From the NCBI GenBank assembly GCA_014804795.1, contig JAAUZC010000039.1, positions 1 through 50,620 of the forward strand: a DNA stretch of 50,620 bases. Reading direction: 5' to 3'. This stretch comes from Lachnospiraceae bacterium (lineage in GTDB: Bacteria > Bacillota > Clostridia > Lachnospirales > Lachnospiraceae). Below, one piece after another: positions 25,823-41,439 of this stretch; positions within the stretch are counted from its first letter, which is position 1, and each line of letters starts with the position of its first letter. The notes under the pieces are model-generated. The model made no database searches. It had not been told where the DNA came from and worked only from the letters and a program-made list of their open reading frames with translations. The position numbers were made by a program, and so were the translations under genes.

Positions 25823-26854
25823 TTAAATGCCGATTTTTTTCTTCCGGTATTCTTTCGGCGTAATATGAAAACTCTCCTGAAACTTTTGATAGAAAAAGGA
25901 CTGATTGCTGTAGCCGCATGAGACGGCAATCTCCTGTATGGGTTTGTCCGTATTGATCAGCAGATAACATACAAGTTTCATCCGGGCATCGGTTATAAGT
26001 TCGGAAAAAGATTTTCCTGTTTTTTCTTTGAGCAGGGAACTGATATATTTGGGATGAAAATTAAATTCTTCAGATAACTTTTTCAGGGTACAGTCCCGGC
26101 TGTGTTCTTCAATGTAATATAGCATCTCCGTAATATGGCTGTTTGGGGAACCGGTCATCTGCGCGTCGGATGATCGGATCAGAAAAATAAAAAGGATGCG
26201 GAGATAATTTTGAACCAGTGCCTGGCCACAAAGAGACGGACTTAAGTATTCACAAAACATGTCCTCAAAAATAAAACGAATTCGTTCATCAACACTGAAA
26301 TCAAAAACAGTGTACCGGAAACTGCTCCTTTCTCCCAGAGTAGATTTTAACAGAAAGTCAACCACGGATCCGGTGCCGCTCAGGCCATATAAAAGGTCTT
26401 GGTTCATATATTCGTTTTGAATCTGGCATCCAAGGATGATATCTTCTTCATTTACCATTTTTAAGGAGTGGACGATATTACTGTTCATCAGAATCAGCAT
26501 TCCCCGGGTCAGCACGATTTCCCTGTCAGGAAAACTGACAGTTAATTTCCCGGAATAAACATAATTGATACTGATAAATTCGTTATAGTGAAATGGGACT
26601 TCCGTAAAACGTGTATGTACAATAAGCCGGAATTCATTGCCGGAAGCATTGGATGAAATGGGAAAACGCAGATCATAATGTTCGGGAGATACGGACATTT
26701 TCCTGTTGCTGAAAAAATAATAGCCGTTGCTGTCTTTTTCTGCATTCCATAAGATTTGGCGCATGAATTCGGCATCAGAAAAACTTCCGTCCTTGATCCG
26801 TTTTTCTGTTTCTGTCAGCGCAAGTATTTTTTCCCTGAATTCTTCCCGTTTCAT
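25823..26854 (-). CDS. AraC-family transcriptional regulator with cupin-type sensor domain
   Basis: The 343-residue protein has an N-terminal cupin-like effector domain (about 70-170: FRLIVHTRFTEVPFHYNEFISINYVYSG, LTRGMLILMNSNIVHSLK) and a C-terminal pair of AraC helix-turn-helix motifs (about 240-340: CTLKKLSEEFNFHPKYISSLL and PIQEIAVSCGYSNQSFFYQKFQ). ATG 26854 follows AGGAGG at 9 bp. It is divergent from the GH3/tannase operon, and the two -35 hexamers stand 1 bp apart. This is the typical setting of a pathway-specific regulator; a phenolic or galloyl-sugar effector is inference. Confidence 0.92.
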   Translation of the reverse strand: MKREEFREKILALTETEKRIKDGSFSDAEFMRQILWNAEKDSNGYYFFSNRKMSVSPEHYDLRFPISSNASGNEFRLIVHTRFTEVPFHYNEFISINYVYSGKLTVSFPDREIVLTRGMLILMNSNIVHSLKMVNEEDIILGCQIQNEYMNQDLLYGLSGTGSVVDFLLKSTLGERSSFRYTVFDFSVDERIRFIFEDMFCEYLSPSLCGQALVQNYLRILFIFLIRSSDAQMTGSPNSHITEMLYYIEEHSRDCTLKKLSEEFNFHPKYISSLLKEKTGKSFSELITDARMKLVCYLLINTDKPIQEIAVSCGYSNQSFFYQKFQESFHITPKEYRKKKIGI

Positions 26855-26899
26855 ATCGTGGAAGCCTCCTGAATTTCAATATGGAAATCTGTCAGTAAA

Positions 26900-26928
26900 A
26901 GTATACCATTTTGTTATTTAAAAAACAA
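26900..26928 (-). promoter_or_regulatory. Promoter of the araC-type gene
   Basis: On the minus strand, TTGTTT (26923-26928), a 17 bp spacer and TATACT (26900-26905). TTGTT/AACAA half-sites flank the spacer (26911-26928). Confidence 0.65.
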
Positions 26929-26929
26929 T

Positions 26930-26958
26930 TTGTATTTCTTAAAATATGAAAATATAAT
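26930..26958 (+). promoter_or_regulatory. Promoter of the GH3/tannase operon
   Basis: TTGTAT (26930-26935), a 17 bp spacer and a perfect TATAAT (26953-26958). Its -35 hexamer is separated by 1 bp from that of the divergent araC-type gene, so RNA polymerase could hardly occupy both at once. Confidence 0.7.
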
Positions 26959-27034
26959 GAGGATTGTATATATGTTGGTGAAAAGGCCGGGTTGCTGTAT
27001 TCCCGGGAACAGCAGTGAAAGATGGGGTATTTTC

Positions 27035-29623
27035 ATGTCGAAAATTTTTGCGTCAAAAAGTCCTGAAATTGAGGACAGAGAGATAAAGCACATGGAGATT
27101 TCAAGAGAACTTGCGGGGGAATGCATGGTTCTTTTGAAAAATGATGGGACGCTACCGTTAAAAAAAGCAGGGAGGATTGCCCTGTACGGGGAAGGTGTAA
27201 GGCGGACTGTCAAGGGCGGAACCGGATCCGGTGATGTGAATACCAGAAGTAATATTAATATAGAGCAGGGATTTCGGGGTGCCGGATATGAGATTGCCTC
27301 TCCCGATTGGCTGGACAGGCAGGATATGCATTTTATGGAAGCAAAGACACGGTATGACAGGTGGGTGAGGGAACAGGCGGAAGAAAGAGGCGTGGAGAAG
27401 TTTACGGTATGCTTTGATGATCCGTTTAAAGTGCCGGGACCTGTGTCTGTCACTTTGGACGATGTTAAGACGGCCGATACTGATACAGCGGTATATGTGA
27501 TATCGCGCAATTCCGGGGAAGGTTCTGACCGGTTTGCCGAAGCGGGAGATTATGAATTGTTTCCGGAAGAGAAAGAAAATCTTGAGCTTATCGCGGGAAA
27601 TTTTGAGAATGTGATCGTTGTGCTGAATATAGGCGGCGTGATGAACCTGACAGAGCTTGACCGGATAGACGGAATCGGCGCTATTCTGTTGATGACGCAG
27701 CTCGGAAATACGGGAGGAGATGCACTGCTTGATGTACTGACAGGTAAGGTGACTCCGTCCGGCAAGACAACCGATACATGGGCGAAACAATATACGGACT
27801 ATCCGTCATCGGAAAAGTTCAGTCATAACGAGAGTGTGCATGATGAGTTTTATGAGGACGGCATCTATGTCGGATACCGCTATTTTGATTCCTTTGGCGT
27901 AGAACCGGAGTATCCGTTTGGATACGGTCTTTCGTATACCTGTTTTAGTATCACAGATGTCAGGGCTGAGGTTTGCGGCGATAAGGTGAAGGTATCCGCG
28001 AGGGTAAAAAATACAGGTGATATGTATGCCGGCAAGGAAGTGGTGCAGGTATATTACAGCGCACCGTCAGAGGGCATCCACAAGCCTTATCAGGAACTTG
28101 TGGCATATAAGAAAACTTCGCTGCTTGCTCCGGGGGAGGAGGAACAGGTGGAGCTTGTGTATGAGACAGCGGATATGGCCTCATATGATGAAGAAAAGTC
28201 CGCATGGATACTTGATAAGGGCGAGTATGTGATCAGAGTGGGAAACAGCTCAGGGAATACTGCTGTGGCAGGCGTTCTTGTATTGGAACATTCCATTTGC
28301 ACGCAGAAGGGCAGGAAGCTTTTTGCGTTGGATGCAGAACTGAAGGAGATCAGGCCGGATCAGGAGGCGGTATCGGCGAAAAAGAGGGAAGATATTGCGG
28401 AAACTGTTTGCAGAAGTGTTATGGATGCCGGTAGCATTCCGCAGAATGTCATGTTCTATCAGGATAAACGCGAGGAGTATAAAACGGACAGAGTCGATTT
28501 GCTTACCGTGCAGGATGTTCTGGAGGGTAAGTGCACGGTGGAGGAACTTACGGCGCAGCTCGGTATAGAAGAACTTGCTGATTTGTGTGTGGGAACTCTC
28601 AGAAAAGACGGCGGACAGGTAGTCGGAAATGCCTCTTATACTGTACCGGGGGCAGCAGGAGATACTTCATCCGTCTGCAGGGAATCAAGGGGCATTAAAA
28701 ATATGATCCTGGCGGATGGTCCGGCGGGGCTTAGATTGCAGCCGCATTTTAAGATTTATAAAAAGGACGGTTCTCTTGTTCCCGGAGGAGGCGGTTTTGG
28801 AGACGATGTCGGGCCGTTTCCGGAAGATCTAGATGAAAATGAAGTGGAAAATTATTACCAGTATTGTACAGCGATTCCAATCGGGTGGGCGCTTGCGCAA
28901 TCCTGGAATACGGAACTTATTGAAAGAGCCGGGGATATGGTCGGCAGCGAGATGGAACAGTTCGGAATCGATCTGTGGCTGGCACCCGCTATGAATATTC
29001 ATCGTAATCCTTTATGCGGCCGCAATTTTGAGTATTATTCCGAGGATCCTCTTATTTCGGGGAAGACGGCGGCAGCAATCACAAACGGCGTACAGAAGCA
29101 TAAAGGAAAAGGTACTACAATCAAACATTTTGCAGTAAATAATCAGGAAGACAACAGATATTTTGTAAATGCCCATGTGAGCGAGAGAGCGCTTCGTGAA
29201 ATCTATTTAAAAGGATTTGAGATCGCGGTGAAAGAATCCGAACCGCTATCCATCATGACCTCTTACAATCTGTTAAATGGCGTTCACACGGCAAACAATT
29301 ATGATCTGATACAGGCGACGGCAAGAGATGAATGGGGCTTTAAAGGGGTGGTTATGACAGACTGGTTTACGTCTCAGCATGCTCCGGGAATGACAGGAAA
29401 ATATAAAGCGCAGTATCCGATTTCTGCTTCCACAGGCTGTATCTTTGCGGGAAATGATATACAGATGCCGGGATGTCAGAAGAATTATGATGATATTGTG
29501 GAGGCTGTCACAACAGGAAAAGAGATAGACGGTTATCGGATCACAAAGGCTGATCTGCAGTTTTGTGCGGCGAATATGATAAGAGTTGCAGTGATGACAA
29601 TAGAAAATAAAGGAGTGGAATGA
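27035..29623 (+). CDS. GH3-family beta-glucosidase with permuted domain order
   Basis: The 862-residue cytosolic enzyme carries the GH3 C-terminal-type domain first (about 15-290: SRELAGECMVLLKNDGTLPL, then a YPFGYGLSYTCF segment). A fibronectin-III-like domain follows (about 310-385), and the catalytic TIM barrel comes last (about 550-850: LADGPAGLRLQ, GRNFEYYSEDP, KHFAVNNQEDNR). The nucleophile Asp is in VVMTDWF near residue 770. This inverted order is known for beta-glucosidases of rumen Clostridia. There is no signal peptide. ATG 27035 is the first good start; the frame is open back to the promoter. The stop overlaps the UbiD-type gene. Likely role: hydrolysis of phenolic or galloyl glucosides. 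Confidence 0.92.
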   Translation: MSKIFASKSPEIEDREIKHMEISRELAGECMVLLKNDGTLPLKKAGRIALYGEGVRRTVKGGTGSGDVNTRSNINIEQGFRGAGYEIASPDWLDRQDMHFMEAKTRYDRWVREQAEERGVEKFTVCFDDPFKVPGPVSVTLDDVKTADTDTAVYVISRNSGEGSDRFAEAGDYELFPEEKENLELIAGNFENVIVVLNIGGVMNLTELDRIDGIGAILLMTQLGNTGGDALLDVLTGKVTPSGKTTDTWAKQYTDYPSSEKFSHNESVHDEFYEDGIYVGYRYFDSFGVEPEYPFGYGLSYTCFSITDVRAEVCGDKVKVSARVKNTGDMYAGKEVVQVYYSAPSEGIHKPYQELVAYKKTSLLAPGEEEQVELVYETADMASYDEEKSAWILDKGEYVIRVGNSSGNTAVAGVLVLEHSICTQKGRKLFALDAELKEIRPDQEAVSAKKREDIAETVCRSVMDAGSIPQNVMFYQDKREEYKTDRVDLLTVQDVLEGKCTVEELTAQLGIEELADLCVGTLRKDGGQVVGNASYTVPGAAGDTSSVCRESRGIKNMILADGPAGLRLQPHFKIYKKDGSLVPGGGGFGDDVGPFPEDLDENEVENYYQYCTAIPIGWALAQSWNTELIERAGDMVGSEMEQFGIDLWLAPAMNIHRNPLCGRNFEYYSEDPLISGKTAAAITNGVQKHKGKGTTIKHFAVNNQEDNRYFVNAHVSERALREIYLKGFEIAVKESEPLSIMTSYNLLNGVHTANNYDLIQATARDEWGFKGVVMTDWFTSQHAPGMTGKYKAQYPISASTGCIFAGNDIQMPGCQKNYDDIVEAVTTGKEIDGYRITKADLQFCAANMIRVAVMTIENKGVE

Positions 29624-31107
29624 TGGATAACAGAACCGATATTTTATCCCTTCGGGATGCATTAAAGGTATTGGAGGATATTCTGGGACAGCTGGTGCAG
29701 ACCGATGTGCCTGTCAATCCGGAGGCAGAACTGTCCGGCATCTACCGCTATGTAGGCGCGGGAGGAACAGTGAAACGTCCCACCAGAGTTGACGGACCGG
29801 CGATGATCTTTAGCAGCATTGAAGGATTTGATGATGCCCGTGTATTGATAGGCCTGCTGGCAAGCAGAAAGCGTGTAGCCACGTTGTTTGGATGTTCGCA
29901 GGGGGAACTGCCCAAAGTAATCTATGACTGCGTAAAAGACCCGATTCAGCCGGTGCTGACAAAAGAACCGGCTCCTTGTCAGGAAGTGGTGCATCGGGCG
30001 GAGGATACGGATTTTGATTTGCATAAATTAATTCCGGCTCCTACGAATACACCGGTGGACGCAGGTCCCTATATTACTTTGGGCATGTGTTATGCAACCC
30101 ATCCTGATACGGGTGTCAGTGATGTGACAATTCATCGGATGTGCATTCAGGGAAAGGATGAACTGTCTGTTTTTCTCCAGCCCGGTTCCCGTCACATCGG
30201 GGCCATGGCAGAGCGTGCAACGGAACTGGGACAGCCTCTCCCTATCTCGGTTTCGATAGGGGTTGATCCTGCTATTGAGATTCTTTCCTGTTTCGAACCG
30301 CCTACAACGCCGCTCGGTTATAACGAACTTTCTATTGCCGGCGCGCTTCGTAAAAAAGCAGTAGAGCTTGTACCTTGTGTCTCCATCAAGGAAAACGCGA
30401 TCGCTAATGCGGAATATGTGATTGAGGGAGAGATCATGCCCGGTGTGAAGGTTGTGGAAGACCAGAACAGCCACACCGGTTATGCCATGCCGGAATTCCC
30501 GGGCTATAACGGTCCGGCAAGCCACGAGTGTTGGCTGATCAAGGTAAAAGCGGTTACTCATAGAAAGCATCCTATCATGCAGACCTGTATCGGTCCTTCC
30601 GAGGAACATGTCAACATGGCCGGCCTGCCCACAGAAGCAAGCATTTACGGTATGATCGAGAAGGCGATGCCCGGACGTCTGACAGGCATTTATGCCCATC
30701 GTTCCGGTGGCGGAAAGTATATGGTAATCCTGCAGTTTAAGAAAAAGGATCACACCGACGAAGGCAGACAGCGTCAGGCAGCATTACTGGCATTTTCCGC
30801 GTTCCCCGAACTGAAACATGTGATCCTTGTGGATGATGATGTGGACATTTTTGATACGAACGATGTCTTATGGGCGCTCAATACGCGTTTTCAGGGAGAC
30901 AGAGATATTATTGCAATCCCCGGCGTCCGCTGTCATCCGTTGGATCCGTCCAGCAATCCCCGGTTCAGTGACAGCATCCGAGATGTGGGGATTTCGTGTA
31001 AGACCATTTTTGACTGTACCGTACCGTTTGATATGAAAGACCGGTTTCAACGTGCGCCTTTCCTAGAAGTAGACCCGCGGAAATGGCTGCCCGATTTTAT
31101 GTGGTAA
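29620..31107 (+). CDS. lpdC: UbiD-family prenyl-FMN decarboxylase, probable gallate decarboxylase catalytic subunit
   Basis: The 495-residue protein is a UbiD-type non-oxidative decarboxylase. Family stretches include GPAMIFSSIEGFDDARVLIG, TLGMCYATHPDTG, IHRMCIQGKDELSVF, the acidic active-site area EGEIMPG and HTGYAMPEFPGY, and a C-terminal VDDDVDIFDTNDVLWALNTR. It removes CO2 from aromatic acids with prenylated FMN made by the next gene. Between GH3 and a UbiX/LpdD/tannase set, the best guess is gallate to pyrogallol, as for LpdC of lactobacilli; protocatechuate or 4-hydroxybenzoate remain possible. The start overlaps the GH3 stop (ATGA). Confidence 0.9.
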   Translation: MMDNRTDILSLRDALKVLEDILGQLVQTDVPVNPEAELSGIYRYVGAGGTVKRPTRVDGPAMIFSSIEGFDDARVLIGLLASRKRVATLFGCSQGELPKVIYDCVKDPIQPVLTKEPAPCQEVVHRAEDTDFDLHKLIPAPTNTPVDAGPYITLGMCYATHPDTGVSDVTIHRMCIQGKDELSVFLQPGSRHIGAMAERATELGQPLPISVSIGVDPAIEILSCFEPPTTPLGYNELSIAGALRKKAVELVPCVSIKENAIANAEYVIEGEIMPGVKVVEDQNSHTGYAMPEFPGYNGPASHECWLIKVKAVTHRKHPIMQTCIGPSEEHVNMAGLPTEASIYGMIEKAMPGRLTGIYAHRSGGGKYMVILQFKKKDHTDEGRQRQAALLAFSAFPELKHVILVDDDVDIFDTNDVLWALNTRFQGDRDIIAIPGVRCHPLDPSSNPRFSDSIRDVGISCKTIFDCTVPFDMKDRFQRAPFLEVDPRKWLPDFMW

Positions 31108-31108
31108 G

Positions 31109-31681
31109 ATGATGAAAAAACAACGTTTGATCCTGGGAGTCAGTGGCGCTTCCGGTGTGATTTTAAGTTTCTATCTGGCAAAAGCCATAAAAGAACAGGA
31201 AACAGAGCTGCATCTGGTCATTTCGGATGCGGCCCGCCTGACATGGGAACTGGAAACGGAATATCCGATCAGTCATTTAACAAATCTGGCGGATGTGATT
31301 TATGATTCCCATGATATGGCGGCAAAAATATCCAGCGGCTCCTATCAGACAATGGGTATGGTTATCGCGCCGTGCAGTATGAAGACACTGGCGGGCATTG
31401 TTACCGGCTATACGGATAATCTTCTGCTCAGGGCAGTAGATGTCTGTATGAAAGAGGGGCGTAAAGTCGTACTTTGCCCGCGGGAAATGCCGCTTGGGAA
31501 AGTACATCTGCGCAATATGAATGCGGCCGCTGATCTGGGCTGCGTGATCGTGCCGCCTATGCTGAGTTTTTACAGCGGCCAGATGACTGTGGAAGACCAG
31601 ATACATCATATTGTGGGGAAAATCCTTATGCAGTATGGATTGGATTATGGAGAGTTCCGCCCTTGGAACGGAGCGGGCTGA
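31109..31681 (+). CDS. lpdB: UbiX-family flavin prenyltransferase
   Basis: The 190-residue flavoprotein (ATG 31109 or 31112) prenylates FMN to make the cofactor of the UbiD-type decarboxylase. The N-terminal GVSGASGVILSFYLAKAI binds FMN, LHLVISDAARLTWELE follows, then VIAPCSMKTLAGIVTGYTDN with the conserved SMKT, and VVLCPREMPLGKVHLRNM. The length fits the family. It starts 1 bp after the UbiD-type stop, so the two are coupled. In tannin-degrading lactobacilli the matching protein is LpdB. Confidence 0.94.
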   Translation: MMKKQRLILGVSGASGVILSFYLAKAIKEQETELHLVISDAARLTWELETEYPISHLTNLADVIYDSHDMAAKISSGSYQTMGMVIAPCSMKTLAGIVTGYTDNLLLRAVDVCMKEGRKVVLCPREMPLGKVHLRNMNAAADLGCVIVPPMLSFYSGQMTVEDQIHHIVGKILMQYGLDYGEFRPWNGAG

Positions 31682-31729
31682 AAAGAGAGCGTTTCAGGGC
31701 AGGAATGGAGTTGACAAGGGGGTATTTTC

Positions 31730-32110
31730 ATGGAAAGTATTTCAGCTGCGGCCGGAGAAGGAAAGTATGTCGTGAAAGGGATTGCTGTTTTATGCGGGCA
31801 GGATGTGAACATGGCTTTTACCGGCGGAACGCTTCCCCATACAGGGGCGGTTTCGATGGGAATTTACGAACCTGTACGCCGGTCTGCTACGGTAAGCACG
31901 ATTACGGCATTTACCCACCGGGATGACAGACTATCTGCCACAGGCGCTAAAAAAGCGGCAACTGCACTGGAATGTACCGCGGTGGTGACTGTGGGAATAC
32001 ATATTGATGATGCGGATGTGCGGGAATTGAGCATATTGTGTGATAATTTTGAGCAATGTTGCGACAGATTGATAGAAAATATAAAAGAGAGAAGGAGTGA
32101 CAGGAGATGA
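31730..32110 (+). CDS. lpdD: LpdD-like small subunit/chaperone of the decarboxylase
   Basis: The 126-residue protein has the pattern of LpdD, the small protein always found with gallate-type UbiD/UbiX pairs. It starts [20 protein letters not shown], then [15 protein letters not shown], and ends with [23 protein letters not shown]. In other bacteria it is proposed as a prenyl-FMN chaperone or small subunit. Its presence separates this locus from general UbiD/UbiX pairs and points to phenolic-acid decarboxylation. The last bases overlap the tannase start (ATGA). Confidence 0.82.
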
Positions 32111-33585
32111 GTGATAAGTTACGTTTTGACGCGGAAAAGTATGAGGTGAAAACATGCGAGCTGGATGGCCGCAGCATTACTTACCGTGCTTTTGAGGGGA
32201 TTGATTATTGTGAAAATCCGGCGGATCCGATTCAGAAACTGAATATTTTTGTACCGGAAGTGTATTATCATGGCGGTGAGCTGAACGGTTATACGTTGGA
32301 GACAGCGCCGATCCTTGCGCACAATACGGTGGGCGGTTATATGCCCGGCGCAGCGGATGTTCCGGGGCGGGATTTTAAGGGGGAAGTCAATACTGTATTC
32401 AAGGCTTTGGAGCATGGGTATGTTGCCGCCTGTGCAGGCATCAGGGGACGTACTTCCGGTATGAAGAGCGAGGAATTTTTCGTAGGGGGAAAGGCGGATT
32501 CCGAGGAGGAGGTCACCGGTAAATTTGTGGGTAAGGCGCCGGCTCTGATCGTGGATATGAAAGCGGCGGTGCGCTATCTGCGCTATAATAAGGGCATTGT
32601 TCCCGGCAATGTGGAGAAGATCATTACCAATGGCACCAGCGCGGGCGGTGCTTTGTCGGCTATGACAGGGGCATCCGGAAACAGCCCCGATTATGCACCT
32701 TACCTTGCAGCGATAGGGGCCGCAGATGAGCGGGATGATATTTTTGCGGCAAGCTGCTATTGCCCGATCCATAATCTGGAAAACGCAGACATGGCTTATG
32801 AGTGGTTGTTTTCAGGGCATAATGCGTACCGCAACAGGGCTTTTGTAAAAGAGGACGGAAAAGTACGTGAGACAACGAAGGATGGCATGCTGACGGAAAA
32901 GCAGATAGAGCTGTCAAAGGAGCTGAAAAAGCTGTTTCCTGCCTATGTAAACGGATTAGGCCTGACCGATCGAGAAGGAAATACCCTGACGCTTGATGAA
33001 AACGGAGAAGGCAGCTTTAAAGAGTATATCCGCGGCTGTATTCTGCAATCTGCACAAAAAGAGTTGGACACACATGATTCCTCAGAGCGCCTGCACGGGC
33101 TGGCGATGCCGGGCAGTGAAGTAGAGAAACTGCCCTGCCTGACCATTGAGAATGGCAAGGCGGTGGCGCTGAACTGGGATGACTATGTAAAGGCTATTAC
33201 CAGAATGAAACCTGTGCCGGCGTTTGACGCGCTGGATCTGGAGAGTCCGGAAAATGAAGAATTCGGTACGGAAGAGATCAAGGCAAAACATTTTACGGTT
33301 TTCGCGAAGGAAAACAGTGAAGCGGACGGAGAAATGGCCGATGAGCAGGTTATAAAGATGCTGAATCCGGTAAAATATATCGGAGAGGCTGATACCGCGA
33401 AGCACTGGCGTATCCGCCATGGTTCGTATGACAGGGATACTTCACTGGCAATACCTGTTATTTTGGCAACATTGCTGGAAAACAAAGGATATGATGTGGA
33501 TTTCTTTTTACCCTGGGGACTGCCTCATGCGGGAGATTATGATCTGGAAGAGATGTTTGCATGGATAGATAGTATCTGCAAATAA
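32107..33585 (+). CDS. tanB: Tannase (tannin acylhydrolase), bacterial type
   Basis: The 492-residue alpha/beta hydrolase splits galloyl esters such as those of gallotannins, galloyl-glucose and methyl gallate. The nucleophile is S178 in GTSAGG, with the probable partners D442 (HGSYDRDTS) and H474 ([10 protein letters not shown]). Other stretches resemble Lactobacillus tannase: [47 protein letters not shown] and AKHWRIRHG. The insertion near 117-140 is family-variable. There is no signal peptide, so it acts on imported substrate. It overlaps the LpdD-like gene and is followed 67 bp later by the regulator genes. Confidence 0.93.
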
Positions 33586-33652
33586 AATAGTGTCGTCTGA
33601 CAGCGGTATATCGAGAGAGTGATACACATTCTCAAAAAGAGGTGGATTGTAT

Positions 33653-35299
33653 ATGAAATACAGGCTGATCATCGCGGATGATGAAAGTAAGATCATTCAG
33701 CTGATAAAACAGTTGGGTCACTGGGAAGAACTAAATATTGAGATCGTGGATGAATGTACAAACGGCAGGGCGGCGTATGAAAGCATCCGTGAAAAAAAGC
33801 CGGATCTTGTCCTGTCGGATATTAAAATGCCCGTTTATGATGGAATCGAACTGATCCAGAAGCTGCGGGATGAGGGAATTGATCCGTTTTTTATCCTGCT
33901 CAGCGGCTACCGTCATTTTGAGTACGCAAGAAGCGCGATCCAGCTGAATGTCATTGATTATCTGTTAAAACCAATCGATGAAGAGCAGCTGAACCGGACG
34001 CTGAAAAGAGCCTGTATCAGTATCGAGGAAGCCCGTGTACAGAAGGAAGAGAGCAGCAGGATCTCCGCCTGGAAAAATGACAGGGAGCAGGAAAAGAGAG
34101 AAGAGTTCTGGAGGATCTTTACGGACGGACCAAAGATTGAATTCTATATGGAAGGAAAAGGGAAAAATTCGTGGAAATATCCGGATTTTCCCTATGATCA
34201 AAAAGAGTGTGCCGACCTGTTCTGTATGGAACTTCCCTATGACCGCTTTCAGATACTGTGCATTTTTTCTGACCTGAGTTCTATTTTGGGGCATACCAGT
34301 TCCGCAGGGCATAAGAAGGTGGAAGGATTTATTCAGGAGTGCATGCAGAAAAAGGCAGTCACATATTATCATACGACGTATATGGGTTATATTATTTTGC
34401 TGAATTATGAAAAGGAACGGGCAAAGGAAGTCCATCAGGCAATCTGTGCTCTCTATTATAATATTCTGGACCTCAGTGAACTGTATGGGGAAATACGGCT
34501 GAATATCGGTATCAGCTCCGAGAAGGAATTGCTGTCCCGGCTGCCGGATGCGTTTCAGGAGGCTCATGATTCAGAGTGGGGAAGGCTCGTCTATGCAGGA
34601 AACGGCATATTGGATTATGAGCAGATTGACAGACTGGCCGTATGCAGCATAACGGATATCGTGTCAGAAGAAGAGATGGAACAGATCAGGGATGCCGTGA
34701 AATATTTAAAGTCGGAAGAGTTTGGAGAAGCAGCACAGAACATATGCAGAAGATGCGGAACTTATAACAGTTATAATCCAAGAATTTTTATGATGCTGTT
34801 TTTCTATGTGGAATATATGATGAGAGAATTCATCACGGATAAAAAGAAATGGGAACGATTTAAGGAAAATTATTATTATGCATATTTAAATGGCGGGAAC
34901 TACCAACAGGTTATTAAGGGGGCATTCTTTGTCCTGATGCAGTATATAGAAGAGGAAAAAAAGCAGATACGGCAAAAAATGGACAAGCCTGTTTCCATGG
35001 CGGTGCAGTATATTAAAGAGCATTATCAGGAACAGATTTCTTTAGAGGATGCAGCGTCTGCCGGGAATGTATCACCGAATTATCTCAGCAAACTGTTCCG
35101 GAATGAAATGGGAATTGGTTTTCTGGATTATCTGACGCAGATTAGATTGAAGGAATCGGAAAAACTGTTAGAGGGGACTAACCTGTCCATCAGGGAGATT
35201 GCGGCTAAAGTAGGATATCTGGATGAGAAATATTATTCGAAACTGTTTAAAAAGGCAACGGGCATCAAGCCGTCGGAATACAGAAGGATCTACAGTTAA
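33653..35299 (+). CDS. YesN-type response regulator (receiver + AraC HTH)
   Basis: The 548-residue protein has a receiver domain with phospho-acceptor D56 (LVLSDIKMP), acidic residues near 9-11 and K109 (YLLKPID). A long middle region (about 130-440) is followed by AraC helix-turn-helix motifs (about 445-545: ISLEDAASAGNVSPNYLSKLF and IREIAAKVGYLDEKYYSKLFK). ATG 33653 follows AGAGGTGG. It is encoded right after tannase and before its kinase (3 bp gap), so it probably controls the sugar importer and perhaps the tannase operon. Confidence 0.93.
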   Translation: MKYRLIIADDESKIIQLIKQLGHWEELNIEIVDECTNGRAAYESIREKKPDLVLSDIKMPVYDGIELIQKLRDEGIDPFFILLSGYRHFEYARSAIQLNVIDYLLKPIDEEQLNRTLKRACISIEEARVQKEESSRISAWKNDREQEKREEFWRIFTDGPKIEFYMEGKGKNSWKYPDFPYDQKECADLFCMELPYDRFQILCIFSDLSSILGHTSSAGHKKVEGFIQECMQKKAVTYYHTTYMGYIILLNYEKERAKEVHQAICALYYNILDLSELYGEIRLNIGISSEKELLSRLPDAFQEAHDSEWGRLVYAGNGILDYEQIDRLAVCSITDIVSEEEMEQIRDAVKYLKSEEFGEAAQNICRRCGTYNSYNPRIFMMLFFYVEYMMREFITDKKKWERFKENYYYAYLNGGNYQQVIKGAFFVLMQYIEEEKKQIRQKMDKPVSMAVQYIKEHYQEQISLEDAASAGNVSPNYLSKLFRNEMGIGFLDYLTQIRLKESEKLLEGTNLSIREIAAKVGYLDEKYYSKLFKKATGIKPSEYRRIYS

Positions 35300-35302
35300 A
35301 AG

Positions 35303-36238
35303 ATGAAGAAGGTTATATTATGTTTTTGCGGCAGTATGGCAGCTGCCGTGCTGATGGGAATACTACTGGTGACAGGACATGTGGGCGGAGATCTGTATGT
35401 CCTGCTTCTGTTTCTGTTTTTGTGCGCGGGAACGGGAATTTATTTCAGTATGCAGGAACAGCGGATCATGGATTATCTCACAAAGGAAAAGAAAAAGAGA
35501 AAAGGAAGCGGCACGGTCTTATGGGATGACAGGGAAGATGAGAAGCTGAACCTGATCAAAAAAAGAATGGAGATTTCCTACCTGCAGTATCAGATCAATC
35601 CCCACTTTTTATATAATACGCTGGACAGCATAAGAAGCAGGGCCCTGGCCGACGGTCAGGCGGAGATCGCGAAGATGACGGAGATACTTTCCCGCTTTTT
35701 CAGGTACTGCATCAACAGTTCCGATACGCTGGTGACCGTGCGAGAAGAACTGGAACACATCAGGGATTATTATTATATACAGAAATACCGTTTTGAAGAA
35801 AAACTGAATCTGCGGATAGAGTTGGACGAAGAAGAGATCAATGCGTTATATCTGCCGAAAATGACGCTGCAGCCTGTTGTGGAAAATGCTATAGTACACG
35901 GATTGGAAAAAGTGGAACACAAAGGCGAGATCAGGCTGCGGCTTTACAGAACGCAGAGTAAACTGGTCATTGTAGTATCCGATAACGGAGCCGGCATGAG
36001 CCGGGAAGAACTGATCCGGTTAAATGAAAAAATGGAAAATATGCGGTATAAAGCGGACAGCAAAAAGGGGAACCGTACCGGTATCGCATTAAGCAATACA
36101 AATGTACGTCTGAAAATGATCTTTGGTGAGGAAAGCGGCATCCATTATCGTTCTATGCCGGAAGAGGGAACGGAAGCCATGATCACTCTGCCCGCCGTAG
36201 ATGTATTTGCACGGGTGAAATATGAACAGCGTTTATAA
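35303..36238 (+). CDS. YesM-type histidine kinase without an extracellular sensor domain
   Basis: The 311-residue kinase has only two close transmembrane helices (about 4-24 and 31-49) with a loop of about six residues outside. The His_kinase domain (H101 in QINPHFLYNTLDSIRS) and the HATPase domain (VENAIVHGL, DNGAGMSREE, GTGIALSNTN-like region) follow. Typical YesM proteins have a 200-residue extracellular dCache domain, absent here. The signal therefore probably comes from a partner protein, such as the ABC-like protein encoded next or the binding protein. Confidence 0.9.
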   Translation: MKKVILCFCGSMAAAVLMGILLVTGHVGGDLYVLLLFLFLCAGTGIYFSMQEQRIMDYLTKEKKKRKGSGTVLWDDREDEKLNLIKKRMEISYLQYQINPHFLYNTLDSIRSRALADGQAEIAKMTEILSRFFRYCINSSDTLVTVREELEHIRDYYYIQKYRFEEKLNLRIELDEEEINALYLPKMTLQPVVENAIVHGLEKVEHKGEIRLRLYRTQSKLVIVVSDNGAGMSREELIRLNEKMENMRYKADSKKGNRTGIALSNTNVRLKMIFGEESGIHYRSMPEEGTEAMITLPAVDVFARVKYEQRL

Positions 36239-36255
36239 CAGGAGAAGTGGGATAA

Positions 36256-37617
36256 GTGAAAGAAATTTTGAGAATCCAGCACGGACTTCAGAATGATTTT
36301 CCGGAGGAGGCACTGTTTGATTATAATCTGGAGCTGTACGAAGGGGATATTCTATATATTCAGGGAAACAGAGGAGACGGGCTTCGGACGCTGATCAAGG
36401 TGCTGGCGGGAGATATTCCCTTGAAATCCGGAACGATTTATCTCTGGGATAAAAAAACGGAGGATTACAGCAGGAATACGGCAATGCAATACCGGCTCTG
36501 TATGATCACGGGTGAGACGGATATGGTCATGAATATGAGCGTGACAGATAATCTGGAGGCGGTGCATCCTGTCCGCAGTCCGCTTCAGCTGTATATTTCA
36601 TATCTGAAACAGCGTCAGGTTCAGAGATATCTGGATGCATATGGCGTGCATATTTCGGCGGGAGATGCTGTTTTTCATCTGAACAGATTCGAGCAGATGG
36701 AACTGAGCATCATAAAAGCGCAGATGCATGGCGCCCGGCTGATCGGACTGGATATGACGGACAACAGATATGAAGGAAAGGAAGCGGAAAAAATAGTCAG
36801 CCTGATACGGAAGGCAAATGAGGAAGGGATTTCTTTTCTTATTTTTTCGGAAAGTTACAGCATGTTTTCGGAAATTGCGAACCGCATACAGCTGTTGGCC
36901 GAAGGAAGGGAACAGAAAGAGTGGTACAGACCCGGGGACGACAGGGAAAGAATACGAAAAAGGCTCAGACAGGACATTTATGGAAAGCGTATGACTTCCG
37001 CCGGTTTTCGAGGAGATAAAGAAAACGGATTATTAGGGCTGTATGATGATGAATGGGAAAACAGGGAGGAAATATGGGAATATCTCAGGGCGGTAAAAGA
37101 ATATAACCCAGAGATTTGGAAGCAGTATATTGATGCGGAACTTCCGGGAGAAAAGGAGCAAGGCACAGCTGTTTTTGTACCGATGGAGGCCGCAAAACTG
37201 CTGCTTTCGAATTTGTCCTTGGCGGACAATATTATTTTATCGGTTCCCGAAAGGGTCTGTGGAAGTAAATACGGCATTATCAAAAAAAGCATAAAGGATA
37301 ATATTGTTCGGGGTTTTTACGAGCGGTTTCAGATAGAAAATTCCGTAAACAGGGTAGAAGAGCTGGATCTGGTACACAGAAAGATTCTTGCAATCTATCG
37401 CTGGGAACTGGCAAAGCCCAAAGTCATCTTTCTGGAAAATCCGTATAACGGATTGATGGTGGATGAAAAAAAGATTATGGCGGATTATTTGTGGGAACTG
37501 GAAAACAAGAAGATACGGGTCATCCTGTTGTCCGGTTCCATTGAAAATCTGAAGGAAACCTGTGGGAAGATCCTTGTCACGAAAAACGGAAAAAGTGCTA
37601 AAATCACCACTATTTGA
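36256..37617 (+). CDS. Degenerate RbsA-like ABC protein (pseudo-ATPase)
   Basis: The 453-residue protein has the two-domain layout of RbsA/XylG sugar ABC ATPases but lacks the catalytic motifs. The first P-loop reads GNRGDGLRTL, without the Lys-Ser/Thr of GxGKST. The signature position reads LNRFEQMEL and the Walker B area LIGLDMTDN. In the second half no P-loop is visible and the Walker B position reads VIFLENP, without the Asp-Glu pair. It starts at GTG 36256 after AGGAGAAG. Located between the kinase and the real importer genes, it may be a scaffold or signal-transfer protein rather than a pump. Confidence 0.8.
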   Translation: MKEILRIQHGLQNDFPEEALFDYNLELYEGDILYIQGNRGDGLRTLIKVLAGDIPLKSGTIYLWDKKTEDYSRNTAMQYRLCMITGETDMVMNMSVTDNLEAVHPVRSPLQLYISYLKQRQVQRYLDAYGVHISAGDAVFHLNRFEQMELSIIKAQMHGARLIGLDMTDNRYEGKEAEKIVSLIRKANEEGISFLIFSESYSMFSEIANRIQLLAEGREQKEWYRPGDDRERIRKRLRQDIYGKRMTSAGFRGDKENGLLGLYDDEWENREEIWEYLRAVKEYNPEIWKQYIDAELPGEKEQGTAVFVPMEAAKLLLSNLSLADNIILSVPERVCGSKYGIIKKSIKDNIVRGFYERFQIENSVNRVEELDLVHRKILAIYRWELAKPKVIFLENPYNGLMVDEKKIMADYLWELENKKIRVILLSGSIENLKETCGKILVTKNGKSAKITTI

Positions 37618-37653
37618 TATTTTTTTCCACTTTTTATGGATATTTCTTTTCCT

Positions 37654-37659
37654 TATAAT
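37654..37659 (+). promoter_or_regulatory. -10 element with poor -35 before the sugar-binding protein gene
   Basis: A perfect TATAAT (37654-37659) has no recognisable -35 hexamer 16-18 bp upstream (a T-rich stretch with TTTTTA there). This fits an activator-dependent promoter, perhaps bound by the YesN-type regulator. Confidence 0.45.
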
Positions 37660-37677
37660 GAATTTATCACAAAAACA

Positions 37678-37783
37678 GCATCAGCCCGTACGATGCCCCA
37701 GAGGAAATATTGGATGCAGAGCAGACAAGATTTTCTCTGCCCGAATCGGGTATCGGAAGGGCTGATGCGGAACTATAATAGGA
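37678..37783 (+). repeat. Intergenic hairpin repeat, copy K (before the sugar-binding protein)
   Basis: GCATCAGCCC (37678-37687) pairs perfectly with GGGCTGATGC (37759-37768). GATGCCC pairs with GGGTATC, and CAGAGGAAATATT with AGATTTTCTCTG. The right-side bulge is CCCGAATC. The tail GCGGAACTATAATAGGAGG ends in the ribosome binding site. Confidence 0.8.
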
Positions 37784-37792
37784 GGAAAAAAC

Positions 37793-38875
37793 ATGAAAAA
37801 GAAATTAGCATTATTATTGGCAATGTGTCTGGCAGTCGGAAGCCTTGCAGGCTGCGGCAATGCGGCACAGGAGACTGAGACAACACCGGAGAGCGTCGAG
37901 GTACAGGAAGAGACGGATGCGGCATCGGATGCTGCAGACGCAGTGGAAGAAGCTGTTACAGAAGCGGCAGGCGGCAATATGGCAGGTAAAAAGGTTGGTT
38001 TTTCACCGGTTATGATGTCTTCGGAATTCTTTGCAGGAATGTCTGACCAGATGGAAGAGTATTTTACGGCAAACGGTATGGAATATACATCGGCTGACGC
38101 AGACGCGTCTGTAGAGACACAGGCACAGAACGTTGAAAACTTTGTAACTATGGGTATGGATTACATCATTCTTTTTGCGGTAGACGCATCCGCTATCTGT
38201 GATGCCTGCATCGCGGCAAGAGAGGCCGGCGCGTTTGTGATCAATATCGGAACAGTGTTGGAACAGAGAGATGCTTATGATGTCTGCATTAACGTGGATC
38301 AGTATGAATCCGGCAAAGTGGTTGCCGAGATGGCGGCAGACTGGATTGAAAAAACATTCCCGGATGCAGAGGATGGAAGCATTGATGTACTGGTAATGCA
38401 GACAAAGGATACAGAAGACAATACCCGCAGAAGCGAAGGCCTTCTGGAGATCGAAAACCTTTGTTCCAAAGCACATATCGCTTATATTACAGATCAGACA
38501 CAGACAGACGGCGTGACGAAATCACAGGAACTGGCAGAGGCTGCTTTCCTGGAACAGCCGGATATCAAATGTATCCTTGCTTTTGGTACGGATGTTGCTC
38601 AGGGTTCTAACGAGATCGCTATGAACAAAGTGGAAAATAAAGACGAGTTCGCTATCTTTACAGTAGATACTCCGGAATTTGTACGTAACCTGATCAAAGA
38701 ATCTGCAACAAATGACTCTCTGGTACGCGGAACTGTTATGTTGGGTGAAGGTACACCTTATACCTGCTATCAGCTGATGGAAGGCTCCTGGATGGATCGT
38801 GTGGAAGACGGTGTTTACCATGAGGCATGTATCGCAATCACTCTGGATACCATGGATCAGTATTTTCCGGAATAA
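37793..38875 (+). CDS. Sugar-binding lipoprotein of an Rbs-type ABC importer
   Basis: The 360-residue protein has a lipoprotein signal peptide (lipobox LAGC, C21) and an Ala/Glu/Thr-rich linker (about 24-65). A Peripla_BP_4-type periplasmic-binding domain follows (KKVGFSPVMMSSEFFAGMSDQ, TMGMDYIILFAVDASAI, CINVDQYESGKVVAEMAADW, IKCILAFGTDVAQGS). It belongs to the ribose/galactose/autoinducer-binding group. In this locus the ligand may be a galloylated or plain hexose. It precedes the ATPase and permease genes and is preceded by hairpin copy K. Confidence 0.9.
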   Translation: MKKKLALLLAMCLAVGSLAGCGNAAQETETTPESVEVQEETDAASDAADAVEEAVTEAAGGNMAGKKVGFSPVMMSSEFFAGMSDQMEEYFTANGMEYTSADADASVETQAQNVENFVTMGMDYIILFAVDASAICDACIAAREAGAFVINIGTVLEQRDAYDVCINVDQYESGKVVAEMAADWIEKTFPDAEDGSIDVLVMQTKDTEDNTRRSEGLLEIENLCSKAHIAYITDQTQTDGVTKSQELAEAAFLEQPDIKCILAFGTDVAQGSNEIAMNKVENKDEFAIFTVDTPEFVRNLIKESATNDSLVRGTVMLGEGTPYTCYQLMEGSWMDRVEDGVYHEACIAITLDTMDQYFPE

Positions 38876-38968
38876 CAGAGAATGAAATGTGGAAAGAAAC
38901 GGGGCTTCCTGCGGGGAGCCCTGAATTCTAAGAAACAAAAAGGTATCGGAAATTTGAAAGGATAGTTT

Positions 38969-40459
38969 ATGGGAAAGATACTGGAAGTAAAGAATGTGAC
39001 GAAGCTGTATCCCGGTGTCGTGGCTCTGGATGACGTATCTTTTGATGTGGAAGAAGGAGAAATACTGGCGCTGATCGGAGAAAACGGCGCGGGAAAATCC
39101 ACGGTGATCAAGACAATTGCAGGAGCAATACAGCCGGAAAAGGGAACCATCGTCATAGACGGGAAAGAATATCAAAAGCTGACACCCGCTGTGGCGAAAA
39201 GCGCGGGGATAGGCGTAGTCTATCAGGAGTTCAATCTTGTTCCGTCGCTCAGCATAGCTGAGAATATTTTTTTGGGGGATAAGGTCGGCGGCAGCAAATT
39301 TTTGCCGGATTTTAAGGAGATGAAACGGAAGTCGGAGGAAATACTGAAGGATCTCGGCGTACAGATCAGTGTGGATACGCAGGTGCAGATGCTCTCCACG
39401 GCACAGATGCAGATCGTGGAGATCGCAAAAGCACTTGTAAAGAACTGTAAAGTGCTGATCATGGATGAACCTTCTGCATCTATCCCGATGGCGGAAGTGG
39501 GAAATATGTTCCGGATCGTTCGAAAACTGAAAGAGAGGGGCGTTTCCGTTATTTATATCAGCCACCGTCTGGAAGAACTGTTTGAACTGTGTGACAGGGT
39601 GACGGTATTCCGGGACGGAAAATATGTTATCACAAGGAATGTGGCGGATATTACGAAAAAGGATCTGATCAAATATATGATTGGCAGGGAACTGACGGAG
39701 AAATATCCGGAGCGTTCCGTGAAAATCGGAGAAAAGGTTCTGGAGGTAAAGGATCTTACCGGCAACGGTGATTTCCATGTGAATCTGCAGTTGCATAAAG
39801 GAGAAGTACTGGGACTTGCCGGTCTGGTAGGCGCCGGGCGGACGGAACTGGCGAAGATGATCTGCGGTGATGTAAAGCCGGATAAGGGACAGATTCTTGT
39901 AAAAGGGAAAGAAATGAAAGCTTCCTCTGTGGTGGATGCAGTAGATCTCGGCATCGGTCTGATACCGGAGGATAGGAAACAGGAAGGCGCTTTTCTGGAA
40001 TACAGCATTGAGTGGAATATTCCCGTGATGAGCCTCAGACAGAACAGCAGACACGGCTTTATGGATTTTAAGAAACTGGATGAGCTGGTGGAGCATTTTA
40101 ATAAGACGCTTGATATTAAGACGCCTACCGTAAAGCAGTTGGTGAAAAATCTGTCAGGCGGCAATCAGCAGAAAGTGGTCGTTGCGAAAGTGCTTGCCGC
40201 CGAAACGGATATCCTGATCTTTGATGAACCGACGAGAGGTATTGACGTAGGTGCAAAGCAGGAGATCTATAAACTGATGAATCGTCTGGTGGAAGAGGGA
40301 AAATCCATTCTGATGATCTCATCCGAGATGGAAGAACTCCTTGGCATGAGTGACAGGATTGTTGTCCTGCATGAGGGAAGAGTAAGCGGGGAAGTAACAA
40401 AAGAAGAGTTCAGTCAGGAAAGAGTTCTGGAACTGGCCTCGGGAATAGTGGAGGATTGA
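38969..40459 (+). CDS. Rbs-type sugar ABC transporter ATP-binding protein (two NBDs)
   Basis: The 496-residue protein has two nucleotide-binding domains. The first has Walker A GENGAGKST and Walker B VLIMDEPSAS. The second has the usual partially altered P-loop GLVGAGRTE, the signature LSGGNQQKV and ILIFDEPTRGIDVG. It powers the importer formed with the permease that follows (ATG 40462, 2 bp after this stop) and the binding lipoprotein before it. Its intact motifs contrast with the pseudo-ATPase at 36256. Confidence 0.94.
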   Translation: MGKILEVKNVTKLYPGVVALDDVSFDVEEGEILALIGENGAGKSTVIKTIAGAIQPEKGTIVIDGKEYQKLTPAVAKSAGIGVVYQEFNLVPSLSIAENIFLGDKVGGSKFLPDFKEMKRKSEEILKDLGVQISVDTQVQMLSTAQMQIVEIAKALVKNCKVLIMDEPSASIPMAEVGNMFRIVRKLKERGVSVIYISHRLEELFELCDRVTVFRDGKYVITRNVADITKKDLIKYMIGRELTEKYPERSVKIGEKVLEVKDLTGNGDFHVNLQLHKGEVLGLAGLVGAGRTELAKMICGDVKPDKGQILVKGKEMKASSVVDAVDLGIGLIPEDRKQEGAFLEYSIEWNIPVMSLRQNSRHGFMDFKKLDELVEHFNKTLDIKTPTVKQLVKNLSGGNQQKVVVAKVLAAETDILIFDEPTRGIDVGAKQEIYKLMNRLVEEGKSILMISSEMEELLGMSDRIVVLHEGRVSGEVTKEEFSQERVLELASGIVED

Positions 40460-40461
40460 GC

Positions 40462-41439
40462 ATGGCTAAAATAGTAGATTTTTGCAGAAGAAATCTGGCA
40501 TGGGTATTGTTGTTGCTTATTTGCATTGTCTTTACCTTTACCAGTTCCAATTTTTTAACATTGACTAACTTGTTGAATATTTTGAATCAGAATGCCTATG
40601 TCATCATATCGGCCTACGGTATCGCGCTGATCATGATGTCCGGCGGTCTGGATATGGCAGTGGGTTATCAGATGAGCATATGCGGTGTTGTGTGCGCAAT
40701 CATGATGGTAAGGGGAAATGTCCCTGTTATTGTTGCTGTGATAGTTACGGTACTGCTCAGTATCGCATTCGGTATGGTGGGAACACTGTTAGAGCAACTG
40801 TTACAGCTTCCGAGAATTTTCGTATCCATCGGTCTTTCCACGGTATATCAGGGTATTGCTTACGTTATCACAGAGTCCAAAACAATTTCTTCTCTGCCGA
40901 ATAATTTCAAGGCGATCGGACAGGGTACGATACTGCATCCAAGTCTGACTTACGCGACGATCTTTATGGTGATAGCAGGTATTATCATGAGCTTTATCAT
41001 GGACAGGACTTATTTCGGGCGTTATGTATTCGCACTGGGCGGTAATGAAGCGGCATCCAGACTGGCCGGCATCAATGTGAAGAAAATGAAATACGCGATC
41101 GGCGGTATTGCGGGTCTGTTCTGCGGTATCGGTGCGGTCATCCTGACTTCCCGTGTGGGAGCGGCAGCGGCAAATACAGCATCAGGCACGGAGATTACGG
41201 TGTTGACGGGCGTTCTTGTGGGCGGCGTTTCCGTACGAGGCGGCGAAGGAAAGATTGCAAATTGTGTAGCCGGTGTGCTGATCATGGGGCTTCTGGCAAA
41301 CGGTATGCAGCTGGCAGGCATGAATACATATTATCAGTATGTGGCAAAAGGAGCTATCATGCTGCTCGTAATGTGGTTTGATGCGTTCCAGATCAAGAGA
41401 AGAGCGGTTGCGGCGAATAAGAGGAAAGAGGAAGCGTGA
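40462..41439 (+). CDS. Rbs-type sugar ABC transporter permease
   Basis: The 325-residue permease has about eight to ten transmembrane helices and the BPD_transp_2 signature of RbsC-type proteins, for example GGLDMAVGYQMSICGVVCAI, IFVSIGLSTVYQGIAYV, FALGGNEAASRLAGINV and VLTGVLVGGVSVRGGEGKI. A single permease gene suggests a homodimer. ATG 40462 follows GTGGAGGA; the frame is open to 40456. It ends the sugar-importer operon, followed by a terminator at 41485. Confidence 0.93.
   Translation: MAKIVDFCRRNLAWVLLLLICIVFTFTSSNFLTLTNLLNILNQNAYVIISAYGIALIMMSGGLDMAVGYQMSICGVVCAIMMVRGNVPVIVAVIVTVLLSIAFGMVGTLLEQLLQLPRIFVSIGLSTVYQGIAYVITESKTISSLPNNFKAIGQGTILHPSLTYATIFMVIAGIIMSFIMDRTYFGRYVFALGGNEAASRLAGINVKKMKYAIGGIAGLFCGIGAVILTSRVGAAAANTASGTEITVLTGVLVGGVSVRGGEGKIANCVAGVLIMGLLANGMQLAGMNTYYQYVAKGAIMLLVMWFDAFQIKRRAVAANKRKEEA

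What the first reader, a model, noticed from the sequence alone, without database searches (positions are those of the whole stretch)
25823..41439. Integrated gallotannin/galloyl-glucoside utilisation locus with its own importer and regulators
Seen: tannase with S178/D442/H474, LpdC-, LpdB- and LpdD-like proteins, a GH3 glucosidase, AraC and YesN/YesM regulators and an Rbs-type sugar importer, all co-oriented except the divergent AraC gene. Known: in lactobacilli tannase and LpdBCD convert gallotannin to pyrogallol, usually with separate genes and a gallate permease. Inference: here no gallate permease is present and the enzymes lack signal peptides, so intact galloyl-sugars are probably imported, hydrolysed inside and the gallate decarboxylated. 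This would be a cytosolic, sugar-coupled tannin pathway.
Basis: partly seen in the sequence, partly recalled or inferred. Interest (0 to 1): 0.92.

Follow-up and report, generated by a model that had tools for sequence, protein, structure and literature searches.

The report
Galloyl-sugar operon with dedicated importer
A gut-type bacterium carries one gene block that appears to bring in plant tannin pieces (gallic acid attached to sugar), split them inside the cell and convert the gallic acid, and its control genes include a broken-looking transporter motor that may act as a sensor instead of a pump.

Summary
'Sugar-coupled, cytosolic' is partly supported. Some leaderless relatives lie beside sugar importers (6 of 26 rows: ribose-type ABC, beta-glucoside-type PTS, GPH symporter), and this permease subfamily was found in 3 of 392 genomes of the order, all three holding this tannase. 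The same order holds in 11 of 11 relatives taken by profile score alone. I read it as a possible transport-coupled signalling triad, not met in my paper searches. Enzyme roles rest on homology; import of intact galloyl-sugar and the signalling role are inference. No structure prediction ran.

The parts
25823..26854 (-). AraC-family regulator, divergent (AraC_binding + HTH_18)
   Evidence: Pfam above cut-off
27035..29623 (+). GH3 glycosidase with permuted domain order (GH3_C, Fn3-like, then GH3_N), about 862 aa; ORF opens at TTG 26930 but ATG 27035 fits, by eye, the start of the relative L166:4601-7213
   Evidence: nearest solved relatives are beta-glucosidases such as 2x40
29620..31107 (+). 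LpdC-like UbiD-family decarboxylase, catalytic subunit
   Evidence: UbiD, UbiD_N, UbiD_C; VdcC model 448.5 bits, below its cut-off of 650; nearest solved 5ny5/5o3n/5o3m (3,4-dihydroxybenzoate / protocatechuate decarboxylase), 639 bits
31109..31681 (+). LpdB-like UbiX-family flavin prenyltransferase
   Evidence: two UbiX family models above cut-off; VdcB 252.2 bits, below its cut-off of 290
31730..32110 (+). LpdD-like small subunit (PAC_bac domain)
   Evidence: PF21758 94.3 bits against a cut-off of 27
32107..33585 (+). Subtype B tannase without leader; S178/D442/H474; K368/E382/D444 gallate site; C219
   Evidence: NF041556 634.7 bits against 300; 7q6y 723 bits; residues
33653..35299 (+). YesN-type response regulator (receiver + AraC HTH); ORF opens at TTG 33647
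35303..36238 (+). YesM-type histidine kinase with two predicted TM segments and no extracytoplasmic sensor domain (hydropathy scan)
36256..37617 (+). Degenerate RbsA-type double ABC protein (pseudo-ATPase): Walker A GNRGDGLRT, no LSGG, no Walker B Glu in domain 1
37618..37792 (+). Strongly folding leader of the SBP gene whose outer stem pairs its Shine-Dalgarno
   Evidence: -65 kcal/mol, z -7.5; no Rfam match
37793..38875 (+). Lipoprotein-like solute-binding protein (Peripla_BP_4)
   Evidence: nearest solved relatives LsrB-like, 45.7 bits at best
38969..40459 (+). Intact RbsA-type importer ATPase (GENGAGKST, LSGGNQQ)
40456..41439 (+). RbsC-type permease (BPD_transp_2)
   Evidence: matches at E<=1e-75 in 3 of 392 genomes of the order, own included

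Best explanation
An operon-like locus for galloyl-sugar (gallotannin fragment) use. Proposed steps: the SBP and the RbsA/RbsC importer (37793-41439) bring in small galloyl-glucose or galloyl-glycoside, possibly after the surface tannase A encoded elsewhere in the genome has trimmed larger tannins. The cytosolic tannase B frees gallate and sugar. The LpdC/LpdB/LpdD-type decarboxylase turns gallate into pyrogallol, which leaves the cell. GH3 removes further sugar from glycosides. AraC and YesN/YesM switch the genes on. The pseudo-ATPase 36256-37617 couples the sensorless YesM kinase to the importer instead of driving transport. Shown by sequence: gene identities, active-site residues, missing motifs, gene order and co-occurrence. 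Inferred: ligand of the importer, direction of flux, pyrogallol as end product, signalling role of the pseudo-ATPase, single transcript.
For: Tannase B: model cut-off passed, closest solved relative CbTan2, triad and gallate-site residues kept. Decarboxylase subunits are contiguous with the tannase; LpdC also lies near leaderless TanB in L002, L115, L164 and L171. Sugar importers directly beside leaderless TanB: ribose-type ABC in L010 and L113, beta-glucoside-type PTS IIBC in L001 and L114, GPH symporter in L002 and L164. The permease subfamily (E<=1e-75) occurs in 3 of 392 genomes of the order and all 3 are among the 9 of 392 with this tannase (own genome counted in both; hypergeometric 8.4e-6). 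On the tannase tree the label 'ribose-type importer' changes at least twice over well supported branches: two pairings, or one with a later replacement. No PF00384 oxidoreductase (11 of 14 controls positive) and no CitMHS permease (12 of 14 controls positive) in the genome. [quoted passage not shown]
Against: G056 has the YesM-pseudo-ATPase-importer block but no tannase B hit at E<=1e-3, although it has LpdC at 79% and an LpdB. In G335, a fragmentary bin (76% complete, 730 contigs), importer and tannase lie on different contigs, and the ORFs after the permease in the 8 kb read match none of my seed proteins. In L113 the importer ATPase is split into two ORFs. Of 26 rows scored leaderless, 20 show no sugar importer within four genes; 6 do, against 1 of 37 with a leader, p 0.017, and the seed importers came from these same loci. 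Other transporters also occur beside leaderless tannases: Dpp-type ABC in L122, CitMHS in L051, MatE in L022. LpdB/LpdC/LpdD genes also lie beside a leader-bearing tannase in L005. A tannase A with a lipoprotein-like N-terminus exists. LpdC and LpdB fall below the VdcC and VdcB cut-offs, and LpdC is closest to a protocatechuate decarboxylase. In the leave-one-out test the window pseudo-ATPase scored 214 bits with the profile of its relatives, no better than ordinary RbsA at 206-242.
Confidence: 0.56

Rival explanations
1. The importer carries only free sugar. Tannase A on the surface frees glucose and gallate outside; gallate enters by another route, and tannase B acts on esters that leak in.
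For: Tannase A with lipoprotein-like N-terminus (704 bits against a cut-off of 550) and a second LpdC/LpdB pair in the same genome; SBP belongs to the monosaccharide/AI-2 type family.
Against: Three sugar importer classes occur beside leaderless TanB; permease subfamily only in TanB genomes of the order sample; no CitMHS-type permease found.
Confidence: 0.2
2. Two neighbouring loci: a tannin enzyme block (AraC to tannase) and a separate YesNM-pseudo-ATPase-importer block for an unrelated sugar that happen to be co-oriented.
For: YesM-pseudo-ATPase-importer occurs without tannase B in G056, and triads with other importers occur in many relatives; 61-bp gap tannase-YesN and 175-bp gap before the SBP.
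Against: The same importer subfamily lies beside tannases in L010 and L113, without the triad next to it; co-occurrence 3 of 3; G056 carries a 79% LpdC.
Confidence: 0.18
3. The real substrate is another phenolic ester or glycoside (protocatechuoyl or galloyl-flavonoid glycosides), with GH3 as first enzyme and LpdC acting on protocatechuate.
For: LpdC nearest to protocatechuate decarboxylase; a permuted GH3 also near a TanB in L166.
Against: Conservation of the gallate site in the tannase; LpdC near TanB as in lactic acid bacteria.
Confidence: 0.12

Closest known systems
L. plantarum TanB / LpdBCD / lp_2943 gallate system (PMC4600210, passages seen)
   Same: Subtype B tannase, three-subunit gallate decarboxylase, pyrogallol as product
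   Different: There an IT-superfamily transporter is proposed to carry gallate; here a ribose-type ABC importer, GH3 and two regulatory systems, and no CitMHS permease found in the genome
S. gallolyticus TanB-gallate decarboxylase cluster (PMC4218992, passages seen)
   Same: Decarboxylase genes clustered and close to TanB; a separate TanA elsewhere
   Different: The held text has no word beginning with 'transport' or 'operon'; here importer and regulators are in the block
C. butyricum CbTan2 (PMC8958541; section 8 part 1 and section 12 read, other passages seen)
   Same: Closest solved tannase, leaderless, same triad
   Different: The authors found no other tannin genes near CbTan2
Bce-type intramembrane-sensing kinase with ABC transporter (PMC3023708, search listing only)
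   Same: Kinase of the intramembrane-sensing type paired with an ABC system
   Different: Bce pairs with a translocator with a large extracytoplasmic loop; here a double pseudo-ATPase and a CUT2-type importer
CuaD-CuaS-CuaR three-component cellobiose sensing (PMC10384115, abstract and outline)
   Same: Clostridial sugar two-component system tied to an ABC importer
   Different: CuaS has extracellular domains and binds an SBP; the window YesM has none

Membership tests
Subtype B tannase (NF041556) | Score above curated cut-off | tested here: met
   634.7 bits against 300
Subtype B tannase (NF041556) | Ser-Asp-His triad and gallate-binding residues of CbTan2 | tested here: met
   S178/D442/H474, K368/E382/D444
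Subtype B tannase (NF041556) | Activity on galloyl esters | not testable with these tools
   needs enzyme assay
VdcBCD/LpdBCD non-oxidative hydroxyarylic acid decarboxylase | Three subunits of UbiD, UbiX and small-subunit type in a row | tested here: met
   PF01977, PF02441, PF21758
VdcBCD/LpdBCD non-oxidative hydroxyarylic acid decarboxylase | NCBIfam VdcC and VdcB cut-offs | tested here: not met
   448.5 against 650 and 252.2 against 290; filed only as a UbiD/UbiX-type decarboxylase of this kind
VdcBCD/LpdBCD non-oxidative hydroxyarylic acid decarboxylase | Specificity for gallate | not testable with these tools
   nearest solved relative is a protocatechuate decarboxylase
CUT2 (ribose-type) ABC importer | Peripla_BP_4 SBP, double ABC ATPase, BPD_transp_2 permease | tested here: met
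CUT2 (ribose-type) ABC importer | Equivalog cut-off for a named sugar | tested here: not met
   the sugar-ABC models shown for SBP, ATPase and permease are all below cut-off: sugar unassigned
Lactobacillus-type gallate uptake | CitMHS-type permease in the genome | tested here: not met
   PF03600 0 of 1, controls 12 of 14; PF00939 not searched; lp_2943 itself was not at hand
Bce-like flux-sensing module | Two-TM kinase without extracytoplasmic sensor | tested here: met
   two TM segments within residues 1-51 by hydropathy
Bce-like flux-sensing module | BceB-type permease and an active ATPase as partner (feature partly recalled) | tested here: not met
   CUT2 permease, pseudo-ATPase: not a Bce member, may work like one

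The most novel reading that the evidence does not exclude
YesN, a sensorless YesM and a catalytically dead RbsA form a new kind of transport-coupled signalling triad in this order (Lachnospiraceae and neighbouring families). The dead ATPase takes the place of, or docks beside, the working ATPase on the importer permease and tells the kinase whether substrate is passing. In this genome it senses galloyl-sugar uptake.
Probability: 0.3. Interest if true: 0.82.

Novelty: new variant of a known kind. Interest (0 to 1): 0.62.

Why it matters
How tannin fragments reach intracellular bacterial tannases is stated as unknown in PMC8958541. The pairing of some leaderless tannases with sugar importers gives named candidates that can be tested by simple binding and uptake assays. 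It would tie dietary tannin breakdown and pyrogallol release in the gut to sugar uptake. The pseudo-ATPase triad, found in at least 13 of 392 genomes of the order (four of the 13 were in the search model), would be a general and testable way for bacteria to sense transport.

Tried and rejected
Structure prediction of the pseudo-ATPase (alignment A2): the machine was busy at all 15 tries. The SBP alignment (A3) was therefore never submitted, and no fold search was made. No fold or pocket evidence exists.

A pyrogallol-to-phloroglucinol route: set aside for lack of any PF00384 protein in the genome; the genome is 95% complete, so absence is not proof.

Catabolite (cre) sites: two in the window against 1.07 expected, none in the locus (the cre consensus is recalled). 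Promoter-like sites: 26 found against 28.5 expected, so no signal. Terminator-like sites: 28 against 13.8 expected, not followed up. Rfam: no match in the window.

Leaderless-against-leader test for importers: 6 of 26 rows against 1 of 37. Kept only as description: the importer seeds came from these loci; the one leader-bearing row is the second tannase of L010, in the same locus as a leaderless one; some rows are cut by contig ends or start inside the protein (L034, L038, L047); two rows called leaderless look leader-bearing by eye (L049 first copy, L052); and the window's own importer was not scored because the simple ORF caller kept antisense ORFs over SBP and ATPase (checked).

Common origin of the window pseudo-ATPase with the others is not proved. 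The tree separates 20 pseudo from 16 ordinary proteins (100/100) but joins the window and L112 on long branches, flagged as unsafe. With a profile of its relatives the window protein scores 214 bits, ordinary RbsA 206-242; with a profile of ordinary RbsA it scores 107 against 659 for the window's own importer ATPase. In the phylum sample only the own genome passed at E<=1e-80 (1 of 129). Left out of the 20: L123 (G077), fetched as a candidate but an ordinary RbsA, 45% identical to the importer ATPase; and L059, L063 and L067, which show YesM followed by a divergent ABC gene but were not fetched in full.

Paper searches (open-access library only): for the pseudo-ATPase triad (3 papers; 15 listed of 1,449; 0; 10 listed of 17); for an importer-linked tannase operon (30 listed of 51; 9; 12 listed of 23; 12 listed of 29). 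I saw no description of either in the listings or in the passages read, but most of those papers were not opened.

Full report
What is there. The window is the whole contig C39 of a 3.45 Mb genome, 95% complete. Its family appears to be Lachnospiraceae: G450, marked 'same family', has a contig of the same length and match position as L007, a record titled Lachnospiraceae bacterium. Between MTHFR (24787-25626, -) and an APH-family gene (41903-42859, +) lie a divergent AraC gene and eleven co-oriented genes. The tannase passes the subtype B model (634.7 against 300 bits), is closest to CbTan2 7q6y (723 bits) and keeps S178/D442/H474 and the gallate-site residues K368/E382/D444. The decarboxylase subunits are UbiD, UbiX and PAC_bac proteins. 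The UbiD protein is nearest to protocatechuate decarboxylase (639 bits) and, like the UbiX protein, stays under the cut-offs of the VdcC and VdcB models, so gallate as substrate is inferred from the neighbouring tannase. GH3 has its domains in permuted order.

The same genome holds more. Contig C1 (L111) carries a tannase A (704 bits against 550) whose N-terminus looks, by eye, like a lipoprotein signal, a second LpdC at 79% identity, a second LpdB, two esterase-like proteins (one with Sel1 repeats) and a GH3_N protein. [quoted passage not shown] butyricum (PMC8958541 section 12). No PF00384 oxidoreductase was found (0 of 1, controls 11 of 14), so pyrogallol is probably not taken further by the known transhydroxylase (its family is recalled). 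No CitMHS permease was found (0 of 1, controls 12 of 14). A search with a Blautia tannase-linked permease also found none, but without a positive control.

Is the importer part of it? Four lines of evidence. First, the tannase is uncommon: 9 of 392 genomes of the order at E<=1e-60, 4 of 391 of the class (own genome counted in both), and none of 8 other genomes of the genus at E<=1e-3. Second, the permease subfamily at E<=1e-75 occurs in 3 of 392 genomes, all three within those nine (8.4e-6), in three families; one of them, G335, is a fragmentary bin (76% complete). I take the two samples of 392 to be the same set; the handles shown agree. Third, in L113 (G106) and L010 the order SBP-ATPase-permease-tannase is contiguous, though the ATPase of L113 is split into two ORFs. 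These two importers are 72-81% identical to each other and 39-63% to the window, so they count as one further lineage. Their tannases lie in another well supported clade than the window's, so the importer label changes at least twice: two pairings, or one with later replacement. Fourth, other leaderless relatives lie directly beside a beta-glucoside-type PTS IIBC (L001, L114) or a GPH symporter (L002, L164), as scored by Pfam (L001 and L002) and NCBIfam (all four) (the PTS proteins stay under the cut-offs of the full models, the GPH ones pass the gph model). Against it: G056 has the importer without a tannase B hit though with LpdC/LpdB; G335 has the two on different contigs; 20 of 26 leaderless rows show no such importer within four genes, the window among them for a technical reason; and other transporters occur beside leaderless tannases: Dpp-type ABC in L122, CitMHS in L051, MatE in L022.

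The hidden part. The 453-aa protein 36256-37617 looks like RbsA but has Walker A GNRGDGLRT, no LSGG in domain 2 and no Walker B glutamate in domain 1. In ordinary RbsA the one competent site is made by Walker A of domain 1 and LSGG of domain 2 (recalled). I collected 20 such proteins, window included: LSGG is present in 0 of 20 and in 16 of 16 ordinary ATPases, 15 from the same loci as the relatives and one from the window. At the aligned Walker A only L118 keeps the full consensus; some others keep the lysine, and four of 20 (L116, L117, L124, L174) keep Asp-Glu at Walker B of domain 1, so nucleotide binding is not excluded for all. In 19 of 19 related loci the gene directly follows a YesM gene on the same strand; in 18 of 19 YesN precedes that, and in the remaining one (L112) the kinase ORF runs into the contig end. 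Eight of these loci entered through the search with the window protein, and I picked them largely because YesM stood upstream; the other 11 are all hits of 363 bits or more that were not in the search model, and all 11 show the triad. An importer ATPase and permease lie on the same strand within six or seven genes in 14 of 19; in each of the other five the contig ends within three genes on at least one side. By hydropathy the partner kinases have at most two TM segments with short loops (none detected in L112 and L118), while two other YesM kinases in these loci have about 250 residues between their TM segments. Profile A1 gives 363 bits or more in 13 of 392 genomes of the order (four of them in the model) and 254 or less for the next hit; only four candidates per genome were scored, so 13 is a lower bound. 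Common ancestry of the window and L112 copies with the rest is unsure.

Mechanism. A kinase without a sensor needs its signal from a partner. A dead double ABC protein encoded next to it, beside a live importer of the same type, is a natural candidate: it could bind the permease in place of the live ATPase, or bind the kinase and release it during transport. This resembles Bce modules in logic (PMC3023708, listing only) and sugar three-component systems such as CuaDSR (PMC10384115, abstract and outline), but what I saw of either has no dead ATPase. It is inference; no interaction data exist.

Novelty. TanB beside LpdC is known (PMC4218992; PMC4600210). What appears new, within the searches named in Tried and rejected, is the importer link and the pseudo-ATPase triad. 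The metabolic part is a new variant of a known kind; the signalling part could be more than that.

Noticed in passing
window 37618-37792: SBP leader folds far better than shuffles (-65 kcal/mol, z -7.5, 0 of 200) and its outer stem pairs the Shine-Dalgarno; no Rfam match. Leaders of three related SBPs give only z -2.2 to -3.0. Possible new regulatory RNA.
   Followed up: partly
L010:8074-8781, L034:1217-1924, L113:1479-2240, L164:7631-8365, L167:5474-6175: DUF554-type membrane protein (Pfam on L010 only, the others by BLAST) beside a leaderless tannase B or between LpdC and LpdB in five loci; in L010 it lies between the leaderless and a leader-bearing tannase, and no other leader-bearing locus searched has it. 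Candidate gallate or pyrogallol transporter. The window genome has none (controls 6 of 14).
   Followed up: partly
L111 (G000:C1:1-19900): Second tannin locus of the same genome: tannase A with lipoprotein-like N-terminus, LpdC/LpdB, two esterase-like proteins, GH3_N and an AraC-type regulator.
   Followed up: partly
window 20068-21912: One 614-aa ORF joins SfsA to a HhH-GPD/NUDIX_4 part that looks like a MutY adenine glycosylase.
   Followed up: no
L051:9911-12812: Blautia sp. MSJ-9 has a distant leaderless tannase followed by a CitMHS/DASS-like permease, perhaps the lactobacillus-like alternative to the sugar importer.
   Followed up: partly
L166:4601-7213: A permuted GH3 48% identical to the window's lies about 2.6 kb from another leaderless tannase B, so the GH3 link may be real.
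   Followed up: no
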